Source of the DNA: Apostichopus japonicus
Lineage: Eukaryota; Echinodermata; Holothuroidea; Aspidochirotida; Stichopodidae
Reading direction: 5' to 3'
Length of the DNA stretch: 64,000 nt
NCBI RefSeq assembly: GCF_037975245.1
Contig: NC_092565.1
Span: 5,715,999-5,779,998 of the forward strand
In this document: one piece after another, positions 27,871 to 45,500 of the stretch
How positions within the stretch are numbered: position 1 is the first letter of the stretch
Layout: every line of letters starts with the position of its first letter
Translations under genes and position numbers: made by a program
Notes under the pieces: model-generated
The model's database searches: none
What the model was told of the DNA's origin: nothing
The model's input: the letters and a program-made list of their open reading frames with translations, nothing else

Positions 27871-30800
27871 GTGAGATGACAAAACTATTAATTAATGGAT
27901 CATCCAACTGTTAATTTGAGTATAGTTTCATTAGTTTAATGTAAGTTTAACTGATTAGTTCAAGGGCTTCCCTAACATTGTTGGTGTTAAATATCATTAG
28001 ATGCAATGTTACATTTCAACTAACATGCAACATCATGTAACATGTTGAAAATTTCAAGTTTCATTGCTTACACTACATTTCGTGTTTAATAGAATGCTGA
28101 GTGAAACTACCCACTGCTGTACGTGATGAAACATTTGGTGTTTAATCCGCAAGCTCCAGCTCATTCATTGTGGCTTAAATTTCAACTCCTACCCAGAGCC
28201 CAACAAAGAGAGTAAGTGACGTCTGCTCCTGTAACGCGACAATAGCATAAGAGACGGTGGTAGGAACAGACCTTATGGGGAAAAAGTTAACACATCATTT
28301 AATGAAAGTGAAAATATTCCCCATCTTGGTGGGGTGGAATTCATTTCCCCTGTGGGTTGTACAACAAAAGAAAAATCTGTAAGCAATGATTATTAATGCA
28401 TCTTTGCGTGATTGATTACTAATCCATCTTTGTGTGATTGATTACTAATCCATGTTTGCGTGATTGATTATTAATCCATCTTTCTGCTTAGACGTTGAAG
28501 GACAGCGTAGTAAATTCAGAGGATTCCGTGAAGAGACTGGTAGCAGAGATCAAGATGCTAGGTCAAAGGGTCGTTGAATCTCATAAAGCCATACAGATGG
28601 AGGAAGAGCCAGGTACATTTTCAAGTTTCTTCCATTTGGGTTTGGTACGTTGAGAGTACAAGATGGATAGGATGCTCCCATTGTATAATATTATTGGTAG
28701 CAGTATGCTGGAGACAATGGGTTGTCGGACTATTGTTTGCGAGAGGGTCACAGATATGGTCATGTGCGAAGAAGGTTGGAATGAATTTCAAAACTAACCA
28801 ATGAGTACAAAGATTTTACTTCGCTGCTAAATAAACCTGAGCGCGTTTAGCAGGAGTGTCAAGCATAAATCAGGGACGTTTAAATTTGGTAAGAATGTTC
28901 TATTTATGGTAGTTCGCAAGCGAAGATGTTACCTAACTTATATGGAATTGATACCCAGTTTTTGTATTGAATGAGTGCAGTTGTTAAATTTGTTGTCCCC
29001 GCCAACCCCACCCCACCCCCGGAAAGAATTATCCCTAACTGTGATGAAATATCACTTAGTAATATTCAGTCTTACCGAAGGCGAGGGAGTACAACAGAGT
29101 TGAGGAGAGTGGAATATTCCGAACGTTAAAGTATACATCAAGTTTATTTCCTTCATCCTCAGATTTAGTGTAAAGTATTGTTTTTGGTTAACTCTGTTGC
29201 TCCATTTACCCGAGCGAATCTTGCTAAGAAATTGACTGACTTTCTACACAAGTGCAAAGATATTGGGCTTTTTTTTTTTCTCCATTAACAGAAACTCTAG
29301 TATTATCATCAATATAATGATAAACAAAATGGAGAAACTTTCAGCACATGTAATCAAAATGGTAAACACTTACTTTTTGCCTCCACTCCACCCTCCACTT
29401 TAATATTCTGGCTCTGCTTTCTGATTATGGGTAGGTTGAGATGTAGTACATTTCTCCATTCGTGTTGTTGTCAGATAATGAAATGAGAATAAGAATTAAT
29501 AAAATTGTAAAAGAAATGTTTCCTTCCTCGACAGCATGACTTCATATCCGATACTTCTTCAGTATCTACCTAAATGACAAATGTAGGCTGAATTTAGGCA
29601 CAATAATGTTGTAGTCCACCAGAACAAGGTTAATTTGAGATTTTACACTCATACACTGCTGATCCAGTTTCAAGCTATTCACCATTAAAATATGCTTAAC
29701 CTCAGGTATGTTCCTTTAAAGGCTAACTTGATGATGGTATCAGCTCTTCTAGTACAGGCTTTAATGTTAATGTTAACCCATTGCTTTACATAAATTCTAA
29801 TAACTCACTTAACTAAAGCATGTTCCTTTAACTTGATATTAAAACAACAACACCCTTGCACCCATTGAATGAAAATTAAACACCATCTGTCTAAAAGTTG
29901 ACAAATTTGTACTACCACTGTAAACATGTCATTTGAGACAGGTAAAACTCTTTTTGTGATTTTGTGGTGGATCTGAGCTAAATGGTTAAAGTATTAGACT
30001 AAATAGTCTTGTCACTCTAAACCGATGAACCTCGGCAAATTAAAGTGTCGTTCCCGTAAAAAATAAAAGTGGCGTAAAAAATCCAGACTGGCCTGATAGC
30101 ACTGTTTTTCAACGGTTCACAACAAATTAACTGAGGATTGTTTCTAGAGTCATCAATGGAAAGTCGTCTTTCCATTGTAATATACTGTAGCTTGTAAATA
30201 TATTGCAACTCAAACACTTTTGGCCTTCATGTTGTAATATATTTTTTTATTTTTTGTTACATTTTATAATATTCTGTAACTACTGTAGTTGATACAACAA
30301 TACTAGACAGTTTACTAGTAAATGGGTTATAAATGATTTTTTTTGTTGTTGACATTTCTGACATTACATAAGTTAGGGAAATCATTAAATGTTCTTACAT
30401 CTCTGTCTGTGGCACTGACCCCCTCCCACCAAGAAAGTGATACTCCCCCACCCCCTCCCATCACCCAAAGCAATCTGTGTTCGCCCTTAAAATTATTGGC
30501 TATCGTTGACTCATTCGAGTCTTCAAATGTAACATGCATGATCTACACTTTATGCAGAGTACTTTTGTCTACATGGCTTGTGTATTACTATCTAGTAATT
30601 TTCTTTCATACTCTTTTTTTGACAGAAACACCTATGGTGTCCACCACGGAACAGCTCCCTGAGAGACCTCCAGAAGACTTACATTTGGAAGAGACTTTGA
30701 AAGATAACGTAACATCAGACAGAGACAATAAATTGGAATCCCAAGCCCCTGTAGCCGATAGTCTCATTATGGACATGAAAGCCTCCATCTCATCTCCGAG

Positions 30801-31053
30801 TAAAGTACGGTCTAACTCAGAACAGATCAGGAAAGGCTTACCAGACGATAACCTCCTGAAGGCAGAAGAAGACAGAGGGATTAGAAATAGGACTAAAGTT
30901 GAAGAATCGGAAAGTGATTCGATCCAGCTAGTCCTGCCTGTCTCGAACTTTCAGGATCACAAACTTTTTGAGCCACTGATGTTGCAGCTTCTTAAAAGAT
31001 ATATGTATATATATTATATATATATATATGCAAGCTTTTCTACTTTTGTATGA
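27793..31053 (+). CDS. Unknown protein with a helical/coiled-coil segment (208 aa; 3 coding exons)
   Basis: I do not recognise this gene. Coding exons are 27793-27870 (ATG start), 28492-28612 and 30626-31053 (TGA). Splice sites are canonical and phases agree (0, then 1), giving 208 aa. Residues about 10-60 look amphipathic and helical (MTNEAIHDRMK, then SVKRLVAEIKMLGQRVV), suggesting a coiled coil. Residues 68-180 are acidic, polar and probably disordered, with possible phosphorylation sites (SISSPSKVRSNS, EESESDS). The last about 20 residues are read from a TA microsatellite (tyrosine and isoleucine-rich), so the C-terminus is odd. The exon opening at 27786 has seven nucleotides before the ATG that can be read in frame, so an upstream coding exon is possible. 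Candidate spliced exons at 24316-24420, 25716-25813 and 27293-27324 could not be joined without stops and may be 5' UTR. Confidence 0.6.
28399..28482 (+). repeat. 26-bp tandem repeat at an intron end
   Basis: Just over three copies of a 26-bp unit (ATCTTTGCGTGATTGATTAC, then TAATCC) end about 10 bp before the acceptor of coding exon 2. The units differ by one or two bases. Confidence 0.85.
28492..28612 (+). CDS. Unknown coiled-coil gene, coding exon 2
   Basis: Acceptor CTGCTTAG|ACG and donor CCAG|GTACA. It encodes 40 residues of predicted helix (VKRLVAEIKMLGQRVVESHK) ending in EEEP. A 26-bp tandem repeat abuts the acceptor. Confidence 0.68.
30626..31053 (+). CDS. Unknown coiled-coil gene, terminal coding exon
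   Basis: Acceptor TTTTTTTGACAG|AA, then 141 residues to TGA at 31051-31053. The body is acidic and low in hydrophobics until VLPVSNFQDHKLFEPLMLQL, after which it runs into a TA repeat. The open frame also extends upstream of the acceptor into the intron, which is probably not coding. Confidence 0.65.
30995..31030. repeat. TA microsatellite within the terminal exon
   Basis: An ATATATGTATATATATTATA-type run inside the last coding exon of the unknown gene. It is translated as Tyr/Ile repeats. Confidence 0.9.
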
Positions 31054-39517: not shown

Positions 39518-42500
39518 CTATGAGAAGAGAAGGCGTTAAGATTTAAATGACTTTTTCACAAAATAACCGTGTACAGAGATATACATTTTCTTATCTACTA
39601 TAAAGAGGTGTAATAGTGATAGAATGTGTTTAGTCCTTTCTAGCAAGATCTTATCTAGAGATTGAATCTGAAGTAAGATCCTGTTAGGCTCAAACTTTCG
39701 GGATTTGTAACTTCTATAGATCTGTCATAAAATCTATTAAATATAAGTATTCCTATCTGATTTCTGATTTTTTTTTGTGTGTGCGTCTTTTCTTCATACT
39801 GTATTAATTCATGTTTTGAACAAACAAAATATACAAAAGAAGAGAGCTACAGATGAAAAGGGAGAAAAACAAATCAAGCTTGCAGTTAGTTAGAAAGGCT
39901 TACATGTTTCAACTGAGGTAACTGAGGGAAGCTATATTTTTAACCCTTCATATTATTTTGACGAAAATCAGTCGGGTCTTTATTGATCGTATAGGGCTCC
40001 TGGATGGCAAAACCAGTCAGGACTCAAACCAGAAAGGCCTTAATGCCCTCTAAGCACAAGTTTATAATTACAAAATTATGTTTTCAGATTATGGCTACTA
40101 AATTAATACAGCTTTTTGACAACAAGGCCAGTATTTTAAACTTGACCATAAATGATTTTTATCAGTGGTATAACTTGAAATTAGATAGAGGGAATTGGAG
40201 GGCGAGGGGTCGGGTGAGTCAGGCCACTTTTACGTACTGATGGTTTACATTATGTGCCAATTAGAGTGGCCACTCTCTGATTTTGGCTGGGGAGATTGTG
40301 ATATTAATCTCACCTTCCATATTGCTGTTTTCTCATCTGATGAACAGTGTCTTCTTCATCGTCATACTCAATAGTGTTAGACTGAAGGCAAAGAATAAAA
40401 CAAAAGCTGTCACTGTCATACTCATTAAGTCATTATGATGCACCATCGGAAGAGATGAATGTAAAGTGTATAATTAACTTGCCTCATTATTTACCATTAA
40501 ATTGTTTCTTTCTAATAGACAATGTATTACTTCGACTGCTCAATGTGAAACATACTTCGACTATAAGTATAAGTATTAATAAATGAGATATTATGTCAAC
40601 CGCTACAAGAATTAAGTGGCATACAAACCTTTTCGACTAGAAGGTCATGGAGTAAGGTCACGGCTTTGACTTTAAGAGTTACTCCACTTGAATCCGTCTC
40701 TCTAAATAGACCAGAGAAGGTGCTCAGTCCACCCAGGTCTAAAAACTTCAGCTGGGCTTACGGAAACATTCGTAGCAGGCTGGATATCGCGTACATGGCC
40801 TTTTTTCGTAGAGGGGCTGACGTAGATGTGCTTAACAGCTGTAGTAAAGACTGTAGTGCCCCTCCGTCGATAGCTTTAACCTGGACATGTGGATTGCTTT
40901 GAGAGACAAAATTAAATGTTAGATAGAATTAGAAATGAAAAAAAAAAAAAACAGGGTTATGTACTTGTAGGACCATTATAAGTTATGTACATTTTAACTT
41001 GACATTTTAACAAGAGGCACGAAAGTGTTCTTGTAAGCTGAATTTTGTGCTGGATCTCAACATCCTGTAATTCTTTATGTCCGAAAATAGATTTTGACGA
41101 CATACCTCTAATTTACTGAAGAAATCTCTCTTTCATCCACTACAGAGATTTTGTGTCCTACAAATTTAATATTTCAGTATATAGATATTGCTTGATTTAC
41201 TTTGCAAACCTTTTAGGTTGATGGCTTATCTTTTTAAGTTATTTTGTTTAAATGAAAGAAATCCTTAGATAACTGAAAGGTTTCATAAAATATTGCTGAA
41301 GGAAAACAATACTTAACTGGAATTTTTTTTTTTTAATTTTTTTTAACTTTTTTGTGTAAATTGGCTAGGTATATTTTTAAGAGAAATTTTTTTAAGCTAA
41401 AATTTCAATTGGCCACAGGACAAACACTTATGTCAAAATTGGCTTAATTTTCTTACAACTTGGGAAGTCACAAACCTTTGAACTGCAGAACCCAAGACAA
41501 ATGCAGCCTCTAACTTGATTTCATCTTGTGTACTATTCAGGGCATCAATGAGCAGCTGTAAGCCTCCTGTCGTTGCTAAGTCCTTAGCATTATCAATCTT
41601 TCCAAAGGAACGAAATGGAAGATAAAAAAGAGAAGAACATTTTAAAAGAGAGAAAATATAGAAAACAGGAACTACAATAAGACTTCACGTTTGTCCCATT
41701 GTATTGCTGACTCACCATGATTTATATGTAAAATAAAACTGTTAGCAAACTGCTTATCCACTAGAGACCCTGTGTAAGAGAATGTGTAAAAGTAAGTTGG
41801 CCTGACGTTTCGATCCTAGCAGGATCTTCTTCAGAGGCTAAATGACAACATAATTCATCTACTGGTAGTTAGAGAAAAATATTATATGATATTAAAATAT
41901 CAAAATAAAATAAAACTGCTGGCAAACTGCTTATCCACTAGAGAGCCTGTGTAAGAGAATGAGTAAAAGTAAGTTGGCCTGACATTTCGATCCTAGCAGG
42001 ATCTCTTCAGAGGCTAAATGACAAGCAACAGTAAATGACAAGTAACAGTTTGTCCCTTCTGTTACTGTTACTTGTCATTTAGCCTCTAAAGAAGATCCTG
42101 CTAGGATCGAAACGCCAGGCCAACTTACTTTTACACATGATTTATATGGTGAGAAATGTGGATGGGGGAGATGGCACCTCCCCCCCCCCCCACAGTTATA
42201 TATGCAACCCATTGTATCTAGTTGACATGATCTGGAAAGTATCATAGACTTGAGACTGACTGTTAGTAACATGAAAAAACCTGTTCTGATGGCAGAAAAT
42301 AGGGGAACAAATTTACATCCATCATAAACACAAAGTTTACAGAGAATTGCAAAGAGGAAGATAGAAGAAAATCCTACTCTTTTAGCAGTCTTCTTACATC
42401 CTCTCAAATCTCTGCAAGGGGGCTGTCAAGGTCACCCACCAATATGTTAGAGTTAAAGCATGATATGGAGGGGGGGGGGGTCACAGACTCACAGACAGAA

Positions 42501-45500
42501 TTATCGTTGTATATCCTGCTTAAAAACTTCTGTAATCAGTCGCCATAACCACCAATGACACACAAGTAGACAAGAGACTTTTATAGTTTAGTCCAGTATA
42601 AAGTACTCAGTGAGAACTGCACCTGCAACATTGCAGCAGTGTTGCACGAGCAAGAGAGGGTGCATGGAATTTATATTAATTCTCCTTAAAGCCTGCTGCA
42701 GGATTTAAGTACTTGTCGTTGCTATGCAATCTACTTAATCAAGTAGATTCTTTCATCATCGACCCAAATACCTACCTGATGTACGTAATACTCCAAGTCA
42801 CGTAACGCCAAAGTCTTATCTTCCAACGTGGATTCCGTACTGTTGTACGTTTGTATCAGCTTGGTCATGACCTCCAGGTCAGTCTCAACATGTAAATTCA
42901 TAGCCTCATAGTCTTTCTTCAAATCTTCAATGGATCGGAAACTTTCTCGCAATTTTTTCTTAGCCTGATGATCAGAAAATGAAAAAAGCAGCCCTTTTAA
43001 TCACAATCCGCAAATTTCCACCAGAACACCCACTTGGGGTGTTAATTATCGTAATAGTCTGCTTCATAGCAGGCTATTGCCAGTTAGTTTCTTAAAAAGA
43101 GAAACAACAACAACAAATATTCTGCATCAAAATGGACAAATGGACTGAATTTTGTTTCTAACATGATATGCTTAATGCATTTGCCACCAGAATCTCTATT
43201 TTTCCATTTGATATTAATAGTGTTTTCATTCCATTCCCATGCTACAATTACTTTTAAGCCATAAAGGGGCAGGTCCAAGCTATTGTATCCCTAGAAGCCA
43301 AATTTCAAACTTTACTGAAACACCCTAAATGTGGTGTCATGTTAAAGCTGAATTATTGAAGTTTCAGATTTTCATAATTTTTTTGAATTTTTTTACCTAT
43401 TCAAACAATTACAGCCAGCTAATTTGCATAAATTCAAATTGCAGTGTGACGTACGGGACATTTGGAATCCTATTTCACTGCCAGCAATATGAACTTATTG
43501 AATATAAGTTATGTGGGACATAATGCACCCTTCCTTCCAATAATTTTGACATATTATGTTTGGGGGTTCATCAATTAAATATGCTAATTAGCTAGTGTCC
43601 AAATACTGATGTCCCGTACGTCACAATTTTCAGCACTTTTTTCAAGTTTTGATATGGAGGAACAATTTTTTTTTTGTGATATTCTATAAAGTTCTAATTA
43701 AGAACATTGCTCAACAATATCCATCCCAAAAAAATTGAAATAATATTCACTGCAAATCTAATTATCAAATTTAAAAATGTGACGTACGGGACAAAATGTG
43801 ACGTACGGGACATAGTGTGGTGGAAACCCTGTATAATAAACATGCATGGGCTCCAATGGAGACCACTACTGGAAACCTTCCAATGCTTACAAGTTTATTT
43901 TGTTGAAAGCTGGTAGTTGCAACTTATAATCTCTGCATGCCTGAAGAGCACATCATGGCACCATATAAACTATTGACTGATGACCACCAACAGCCCGGGT
44001 GTTGTTTGACTATTGGGAAGTCAATTGTGCGTGTGGGGGATACAGAATCATCTACGATGCTATTCAACATTGACATTGAATGAGGACGACTTCAAGAATG
44101 TTGAGTTTGCATTTCAAAATTTCGTAGGCCTATTGTGAAGTGTGACTATGATAATGTGCAACTATGTTCTTGTTTCCTGAACTTAGATAGTTGACATTGA
44201 GATTTTTAGTTACAAGTGTAGAGTTTCGCTCGCCCAATTTTTGCATAGGACAATCACTCATGAGTTTGTTCAATAACCAGTATTAGGTCTATAGAGTTTT
44301 CTTTGTTGAACTATGTAGTTTCATAGATGGACATTACGTGGCATTACTGTGGACATTTTGGTATGTTTTGAATGGGATGGATCATATTTCAACTTCAGGG
44401 TCATTAGTGGGGAGTATGATACAGTGTTGTACAGTATACATACCAAAACAGTTTTGCACCAAAACTTTGCATCTTGAATCATTTGTGGTCTAACCAAGCA
44501 AGAATTGATGTTCTGATTATTTGGTCTGGTAACCAGTATTAGGTCTATAGAGTTTTCTTTGTTGTACTAGTTTCATAGATGGACATTACGTGGCATTACT
44601 GTGGACATTTTGGTATATTTTGAATGGGATGGATCATATTTCAACTTCAGGGTCAATAGTGGGGAGTATGATACAGTGTTGTACAGTATACATACCAAAA
44701 CAGTTTTGCACCAAAACTTTGCATCTTGAATCATTTGTGGATAACAAAGCAAGAATTGATGTTCTGACTATTTGGTCTGGTAACCAGTATTAGGTCTATA
44801 GAGTTTTCTTTGTTGTACTAGTTTCATAGATGGACATTACGTGGCATTACTGTGGACAGTTTGGTATATTTGAATGGGATGGATCATATTTCAACTTCAG
44901 GGTCAATAGTGGGGAGTATGATACAGTGTTATACAGTATACATACCAACACAGTTTTGCACCAAAACTTTGCATCTTGAATCATTTGTGGTCTAAAAAAG
45001 CTAGAATTGATGTTATGAGTATTTGATGTATGTGTAGAGTAGATTAATACTTTACGCATTCCATGTTTTATGTGGAATGATCTCACAAGTACAGTCACTG
45101 CTCTTTTCCATATCCCAGAAAGAAGGAAATATGGCATGAAATTACCAATGACATTGTTCTGGCATATCCAAATTAATGTTTTTATGTAGAAATCAGCTTG
45201 TTATGGTATATTCAGGAATAAAAATATGAGTTTATATAGTCAATTTGTATATGGACAAATTGTCCCGTACTTCACATGTCCCGTACGTCACAGGACAATT
45301 TTCATTTGTGTAACCACTCTACTGGAATGGCTTCATATTTTTTTCTAATATGTTACAGCTTAGCCCTTGGAAGGTTAGGCTATTCACTAGTTATAACAGC
45401 TTGATCACTGCCCTCCTAATTTCAGAGCGGTTTCAGCTTTGCTCTTTAGTAAAAAAAACACAAAATTCTCTGGTCCCGTACGTCACACTGTACATTAATT

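What the first reader, a model, noticed from the sequence alone, without database searches (positions are those of the whole stretch)
41799..42120. Cluster of three hammerhead ribozyme motifs in SIL1 intron 3
Three copies of CUGAAGA - GAUCC hairpin - GAAAC - GUC lie within 320 bp, two direct and one inverted. Copy 1 has every conserved core base and a matching stem I (GCCU/AGGC). The near-absent stem III matches hammerheads known from Penelope-like retroelements, which work best as dimers. Copies 1 and 2 are in tandem on one strand, so a read-through transcript (the SIL1 pre-mRNA sense strand) would contain both and could form the dimeric fold.
Basis: partly seen in the sequence, partly recalled or inferred. 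Interest (0 to 1): 0.72.

Follow-up and report, generated by a model that had tools for sequence, protein, structure and literature searches.

The report
Mobile-element fragment with hammerhead ribozyme motifs
A 407-base scrap that looks like the repeat ends of a Penelope-like mobile element sits in an intron of a host chaperone-helper gene and carries three copies of that element type's miniature self-cutting RNA motif, one of them broken; it appears to be an ordinary kind of genomic litter rather than a new host ribozyme.

Summary
The motifs are real but misdescribed. On the minus strand, copy 1 (41800-41838) and copy 2 (41977-42014) have minimal type I hammerhead cores; copy 3 (42082-42120, plus strand) has lost G5 and U16.1. 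Copy 1 has an extra A after A9; copy 2 reads GAAAU. The cluster is one 407-bp insertion (41729-42135) flanked by a perfect 13-bp direct repeat, taken as a target-site duplication: two direct repeats with a 177-bp period plus one inverted repeat joined head-to-head through a palindrome. Published Penelope-like (PLE) insertions show this layout, and PLE pseudo-LTRs carry minimal, dimer-acting hammerheads; here no ORF is present. The insert lies in a 1178-bp intron of a SIL1/Fes1-family gene, in sense. The proposed copy 1/copy 2 dimer is doubtful: in the predicted transcript the inverted copy pairs with copy 2 or copy 1, and the dimeric fold is not the predicted minimum. Rfam shows no hammerhead, even at E<=10 around the site. 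A retrozyme remains a rival, but the 177-nt circle folds no better than shuffles. No relative was found in the collections searched, so membership rests on anatomy. Cleavage is untested. New member of a known kind; low interest.

The parts
41729..42135 (-). The whole insertion (407 bp), sense orientation of the ribozymes = minus strand
   Evidence: Bounded by a 13-bp perfect direct repeat; homology between the direct units ends exactly at 41729; no further copy in the window (next BLAST matches E>=0.31)
41716..41728 (.). Putative target-site duplication, copy at the sense 3' end (CATGATTTATATG)
   Evidence: 13 of 13 identical with 42136-42148; the only 13-nt match at spacing 420 in the window
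42136..42148 (.). Putative target-site duplication, copy at the sense 5' end; its first bases (CAT) also continue the inverted repeat, i.e. a 3-nt microhomology
41729..41905 (-). Direct unit A (177-bp period), candidate pseudo-LTR plus tail, contains copy 1
   Evidence: Direct repeat D1, 95% identical, spacing 177; 5 differences in 119 aligned positions plus one gap against unit B
41906..42031 (-). Direct unit B, candidate 5'-truncated pseudo-LTR, contains copy 2; similarity with unit A clear over 41906-42024 (its inner edge in the palindromic junction is arbitrary)
42072..42135 (+). Inverted, truncated unit C, contains copy 3
   Evidence: Inverted repeat I1, 67 nt, 97% complementary to 41782-41848; 2 differences in 64 positions against unit A
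42032..42081 (.). Palindromic head-to-head junction (18-nt perfect arms, 14-nt gap)
   Evidence: I4 and the wider I3; printed
41800..41838 (-). Hammerhead motif copy 1: GCCU-CUGAAGA-A-GAUCC-UGCUA-GGAUC-GAA-ACGU-C-AGGC; predicted cut after 41804
41977..42014 (-). Hammerhead motif copy 2: GCCU-CUGAAGA-GAUCC-UGCUA-GGAUC-GAA-AUGU-C-AGGC; predicted cut after 41981
42082..42120 (+). Degenerate motif copy 3: CUAAAGA (G5 lost), GAAACGCC (U16.1 lost)
41598..42775 (-). Host intron (1178 bp) of the SIL1/Fes1-family gene holding the insertion
   Evidence: Exon reading frames; Pfam Fes1 E 1.4e-7; GT-AG ends read by eye

Best explanation
The cluster is one retrotransposed insertion made only of pseudo-LTR units of a Penelope-like element (PLE) or a non-autonomous derivative: an inverted truncated unit, a truncated direct unit and a longer direct unit, with no ORF, flanked by a 13-bp target-site duplication in an intron. 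Mechanism (inferred): an RNA spanning tandem pseudo-LTRs was reverse-transcribed into an AT-rich nick by an enzyme supplied in trans; the head-to-head inverted unit arose by self-priming or template switching at a palindrome, and its end joined the target through a short CAT microhomology. The hammerhead motifs are the element's own minimal type I ribozymes, whose stem III (ACGU, palindromic) can only become long by pairing with a second copy. At this locus activity is probably weak or absent: copy 3 is broken, copy 2's palindrome has decayed to AUGU, and the inverted copy competes for copies 1 and 2 in any read-through transcript. Shown: the repeats, the flanking 13-bp repeat, the core sequences, the competing predicted folds. 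Inferred: PLE origin, reverse transcription, ribozyme activity or lack of it.
For: 13-bp perfect direct repeat exactly flanking the unit array; two direct plus one inverted head-to-head repeat with a palindromic junction. Section 6 and passages of PMC3846280 describe this layout for rotifer PLEs: two direct pseudo-LTRs plus an adjacent inverted, shorter one, 8-10-bp TSDs, palindromes at the inverted junction attributed to self-priming, pseudo-LTRs sufficient for integration in trans. Passages of PMC7761336 and PMC6155905 and section 13 of PMC7229834 describe minimal type I hammerheads without helix III in PLE pseudo-LTRs; PMC11167929 passages describe tandem PLE copies, AT-rich targets and reverse-transcription start sites just downstream of the hammerhead. 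The TSD here has 10 of 13 A/T, and the sense 3' end lies 75 nt after the predicted cut of copy 1. The extra A of copy 1 has a precedent: the plus-strand hammerhead of a chrysanthemum viroid has an A between A9 and G10.1 with only a moderate rate decrease in trans (PMC3705267 passages).
Against: No PLE reverse transcriptase or GIY-YIG domain in the 19 stop-to-stop ORFs of at least 110 aa in the window (these are not the whole coding potential). No sequence relative found in viral contigs, prokaryote genomes, plasmids or phages, none of which is an animal collection; so PLE membership rests on anatomy, with no sequence comparison to a known PLE. No hammerhead in Rfam at gathering or at E<=10 around the site. 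The array shares unit size, GC content and TSD size with metazoan retrozymes. No start codon consistent with a PLE ORF was seen downstream of the hammerhead in the open frame.
Confidence: 0.8

Rival explanations
1. A metazoan non-LTR retrozyme: a non-autonomous tandem element whose 177-nt unit is cut out by the hammerheads and circularised, mobilised by PLE enzymes in trans.
For: 177-nt period, GC 0.34, TSD larger than 4 bp and tandem arrangement fit the features listed in PMC7229834, sections 13-14 (150-450-bp units, GC below 50%, circles of about 170-400 nt).
Against: Those retrozymes are described as highly self-paired circles; the 177-nt unit folded as a circle gives -25.8 kcal/mol against a shuffle mean of -25.2 (z -0.15; 84 of 200 shuffles at least as good). 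The hammerheads are of the minimal type that the same paper assigns to PLEs. The head-to-head inverted unit matches PLE insertions.
Confidence: 0.13
2. A functional ribozyme cluster that cleaves the SIL1 pre-mRNA through a copy 1-copy 2 dimer.
For: Both motifs are in tandem on the gene's sense strand; without the inverted copy each stem II hairpin forms with probability 0.43 and 0.70; in the full transcript one of them still does (copy 2 0.70, copy 1 0.12).
Against: Predicted: the inverted copy first pairs with copy 2 (about 64 of its bases) as the transcript grows and later mostly with copy 1; the minimum-energy fold of 42250..41600 keeps it on copy 2. The dimeric fold scores -19.7 against -32.3 for the best duplex. 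Copy 2's stem III palindrome has a U-G wobble. For one lizard PLE the hammerhead showed no cleavage without added element protein (PMC11167929 passages).
Confidence: 0.06
3. A DNA transposon (MITE) with long terminal inverted repeats.
For: 67-nt inverted repeat, 97% complementary.
Against: The inverted arms are not both terminal: the insertion runs 53 bp beyond the left arm; the flanking duplication is 13 bp; two of three units are direct.
Confidence: 0.02

Closest known systems
Penelope-like retroelement pseudo-LTRs with minimal type I hammerheads
   Same: Minimal hammerhead with near-absent stem III and short stem I; tandem direct units; inverted 5' unit with palindromic junction; TSD (compared with PMC3846280 section 6 and passages, PMC11167929, PMC7761336 and PMC6155905 passages)
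   Different: No ORF between or beside the units; TSD 13 bp rather than the 8-10 bp given there; no sequence comparison to a known PLE was possible; copy 1 carries an extra A
Metazoan non-LTR retrozymes
   Same: Unit size, low GC, tandem arrangement, TSD longer than 4 bp (PMC7229834 sections 13-15)
   Different: Circle not more structured than shuffles; minimal rather than canonical hammerhead; inverted unit
Newt/axolotl satellite hammerheads acting as dimers
   Same: Weak stem III, palindromic, dimer expected to be the active form (PMC7229834 section 15)
   Different: 330-350-nt units with loop-loop contacts there; 177 nt and a 5-nt loop II here; an inverted copy in cis here
Viroid hammerhead with an extra A10 (chrysanthemum chlorotic mottle viroid, plus strand)
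   Same: Extra A between A9 and G10.1, as in copy 1 (PMC3705267 passages)
   Different: Unrelated replicon; only a precedent that the insertion is tolerated

Membership tests
Hammerhead ribozyme (minimal type I) | Core C3-U-G-A-N-G-A9, G12-A-A, A15.1-U16.1, H17 | tested here: met
   Met by copy 2; met by copy 1 with an extra A after A9; not met by copy 3
Hammerhead ribozyme (minimal type I) | Stems I and II | tested here: met
   GCCU/AGGC and GAUCC/GGAUC in all three copies
Hammerhead ribozyme (canonical) | Score above threshold in Rfam covariance models | tested here: not met
   0 matches in the window at gathering; no hammerhead among 9 matches at E<=10 in 41500-42300; no positive control run
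Hammerhead ribozyme | Self-cleavage at the NUH site | not testable with these tools
   Needs in vitro transcription or RNA ends
Penelope-like element insertion | Two direct plus one inverted pseudo-LTR, palindrome at the inverted junction | tested here: met
   compared with PMC3846280
Penelope-like element insertion | Target-site duplication | tested here: met
   13 of 13 bp; no empty allele available
Penelope-like element (autonomous) | Reverse transcriptase, often with GIY-YIG endonuclease | tested here: not met
   Absent from the insert; none among Pfam matches of the 19 ORFs of at least 110 aa in the window. It is therefore at most a non-autonomous or deleted derivative
Penelope-like element | Sequence homology to a known PLE pseudo-LTR | not testable with these tools
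   No animal sequence collection; searches of other collections empty
Metazoan retrozyme | Tandem units of 150-450 bp, GC below 50%, TSD above 4 bp | tested here: met
   177 bp, GC 0.34, 13 bp
Metazoan retrozyme | Highly self-paired circular unit | tested here: not met
   z -0.15, 84 of 200 shuffles at least as stable; paired fraction 0.59 against 0.56
Metazoan retrozyme | Expression as circRNA | not testable with these tools
   No RNA data

The most novel reading that the evidence does not exclude
The locus is a self-silencing ribozyme array: an ORF-less PLE derivative that spreads as pseudo-LTR-only copies, whose inverted unit acts as a built-in antisense lock on its own dimeric hammerhead, so that it can sit in an intron in sense without cutting the host pre-mRNA, and unlocks only when the inverted unit is not co-transcribed.
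Probability: 0.06. Interest if true: 0.45.

Novelty: new member of a known kind. Interest (0 to 1): 0.15.

Why it matters
It shows how an apparent host-gene ribozyme cluster can be explained by one mobile-element insertion: the flanking 13-bp repeat and the inverted unit decide the matter more than the ribozyme core. If the lock reading were true, it would explain how sense-strand self-cleaving repeats can be tolerated inside introns.

Tried and rejected
Looked for relatives: exact hairpin-plus-core patterns in viral contigs gave 0 and in prokaryote genomes 0; blastn of the insert against plasmids and phages gave no match. A looser pattern in viral contigs gave 83 stretches (80 listed, all 83 scanned); only 2 of 83 matches have a stem of at least 5 pairs, against about 1.3 expected from shuffled inserts, so these are chance and were dropped.

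Paper searches for the literal sequence found 0 papers for five strings and one unrelated paper for CGAAACGTC with 'hammerhead'. Rejected: microRNA precursor (mir-268, 32 bits against a cut-off of 47, E 0.00047), which scores the head-to-head hairpin; CRISPR repeat matches (E 1.5 and 2.7); a MITE (see rivals). A 29-codon open frame after the hammerhead shared by both direct units was considered as a PLE ORF start; it is short, follows an in-frame stop and has no ATG, so I treat it as inconclusive. The dimer energies failed (a structure-format error) and were redone. From recall, motifs of the form CTGANGAA-stem-GAAACGTC are widespread in animal genomes; no call supports this.

Full report
What is there. 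The window holds three copies of a 16-base hairpin sequence at 41811-41826, 41988-42003 and 42094-42109, the last inverted. On the minus strand copies 1 and 2 read GCCU-CUGAAGA-(A)-GAUCC-UGCUA-GGAUC-GAA-A(C/U)GU-C-AGGC. Copy 1 has an extra A after A9; copy 2 does not, but its stem III is AUGU instead of ACGU. Copy 3, on the plus strand, reads CUAAAGA and GAAACGCC and so lacks two core positions. A relaxed descriptor written after the fact counts 2 sites in the window against a mean of 0.017 in 60 shuffles (maximum 1).

The unit is larger than the motif. The motif copies sit inside longer repeats: direct units 95% identical over 99 bp with a spacing of 177, and an inverted 67-nt arm 97% complementary. 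Aligned without gaps, units A and B differ at 5 of 119 positions, A and C at 2 of 64, B and C at 4 of 63. The inverted and direct units meet head-to-head in a palindrome with 18-nt perfect arms and a 14-nt gap. The whole is bounded by CATGATTTATATG at 41716-41728 and 42136-42148, the only 13-nt match at spacing 420 in the window; 2 of 200,000 random placements showed a 13-nt match at spacings 415-425 (I did not check whether these two hit the site itself). Homology between the direct units stops exactly at the inner edge of the left 13-mer. I take it as a target-site duplication of one insertion of 407 bp. No other copy is in the window.

Where it sits. The flanking exons translate to a protein with a Fes1 domain (E 1.4e-7; reading; the 39-aa downstream piece also matches armadillo-type repeat proteins in the PDB). 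The insertion lies in the intron 42775..41598, in the orientation in which copies 1 and 2 are sense to the gene. The intron number was not checked. The host species was not identified.

What it most likely is. Section 6 and passages of PMC3846280 describe Penelope-like insertions in a rotifer with two direct pseudo-LTRs plus one adjacent inverted, shorter one, TSDs of 8-10 bp, and palindromes at the inverted junction attributed to self-priming; they also describe unrelated sequence moved between pseudo-LTRs, so that the pseudo-LTRs suffice in cis. Passages of PMC7761336 and PMC6155905 and section 13 of PMC7229834 describe minimal type I hammerheads lacking helix III in PLE pseudo-LTRs, thought to cleave as dimers. 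PMC11167929 (passages) describes a lizard PLE with tandem copies, AT-rich targets, reverse transcription starting shortly after the hammerhead, and a hammerhead that did not cleave without added protein. The two primary papers on PLE hammerheads (Cervera and de la Pena 2014; Lunse et al. 2017) are not held; I saw only their titles in reference lists. The insert fits this anatomy without an ORF. The extra A of copy 1 is tolerated in a viroid hammerhead (PMC3705267 passages).

Evidence that limits this. No reverse transcriptase or GIY-YIG match among the 19 stop-to-stop ORFs of at least 110 aa in the window; the few weak Pfam matches are below cut-off. No relatives in viral contigs, prokaryote genomes, plasmids or phages; animal genomes could not be searched. 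Rfam shows no hammerhead, and I ran no positive control for the minimal type. A retrozyme shares unit size, GC and TSD length, but the 177-nt unit as a circle is no more stable than shuffles (z -0.15; 84 of 200 at least as stable).

Would it cut the pre-mRNA? Folding predictions (37 C, no tertiary contacts) give: dimeric hammerhead of copies 1 and 2 -19.7 kcal/mol, of copy 1 with itself -21.5, of copy 2 with itself -17.2; best duplexes -32.3, -32.8 and -31.8; two monomer minima together -24.5 for copies 1 and 2. As the transcript grows, the inverted copy pairs with copy 2 (63-65 of its bases) until copy 1 is complete, then at equilibrium mostly with copy 1 (about 50-59 bases) and partly with copy 2 (6-15). 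The minimum-energy fold of 42250..41600 keeps the inverted copy on copy 2 and the centroid puts it on copy 1; the fold is far more stable than 20 shuffles (z -12.2), because of the inverted repeat. In the full transcript the stem II hairpin forms with probability 0.70 in copy 2 and 0.12 in copy 1; without the inverted copy 0.43 and 0.70; each copy's own stem I is near 0 in both cases. So one hammerhead at a time may be free, but both together, as the dimer needs, is disfavoured. No known dimeric hammerhead was run as a control, so the energies argue only weakly.

Verdict. Observation partly confirmed, interpretation partly supported. A new locus of a known kind: a pseudo-LTR-only, PLE-like insertion with decaying minimal hammerheads. 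Interest low.

Noticed in passing
42002-42092: The head-to-head junction scores as a mir-268-like hairpin (32 bits, cut-off 47, E 0.00047), an example of how an inverted transposon repeat mimics a microRNA precursor.
   Followed up: partly
42180-42192 and 42472-42481: A run of C and a run of G of about ten or more bases each in the same intron as the insertion.
   Followed up: no
41785-41801 (minus strand), repeated in unit B: After the hammerhead both direct units continue with a G-poor A/C/T-rich stretch, reminiscent of the AC-rich stem loop in which a lizard PLE starts reverse transcription (PMC11167929 passages).
   Followed up: no
30337-31053: The longest stop-to-stop ORF of the window (238 aa, plus strand) has no Pfam match at E<=0.1.
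   Followed up: no
41848-41905: The 5' part of unit A holds a short AT-rich palindrome (GATATTTTAATATC) next to a TATA-like stretch, features also mentioned for rotifer PLE pseudo-LTRs.
   Followed up: no
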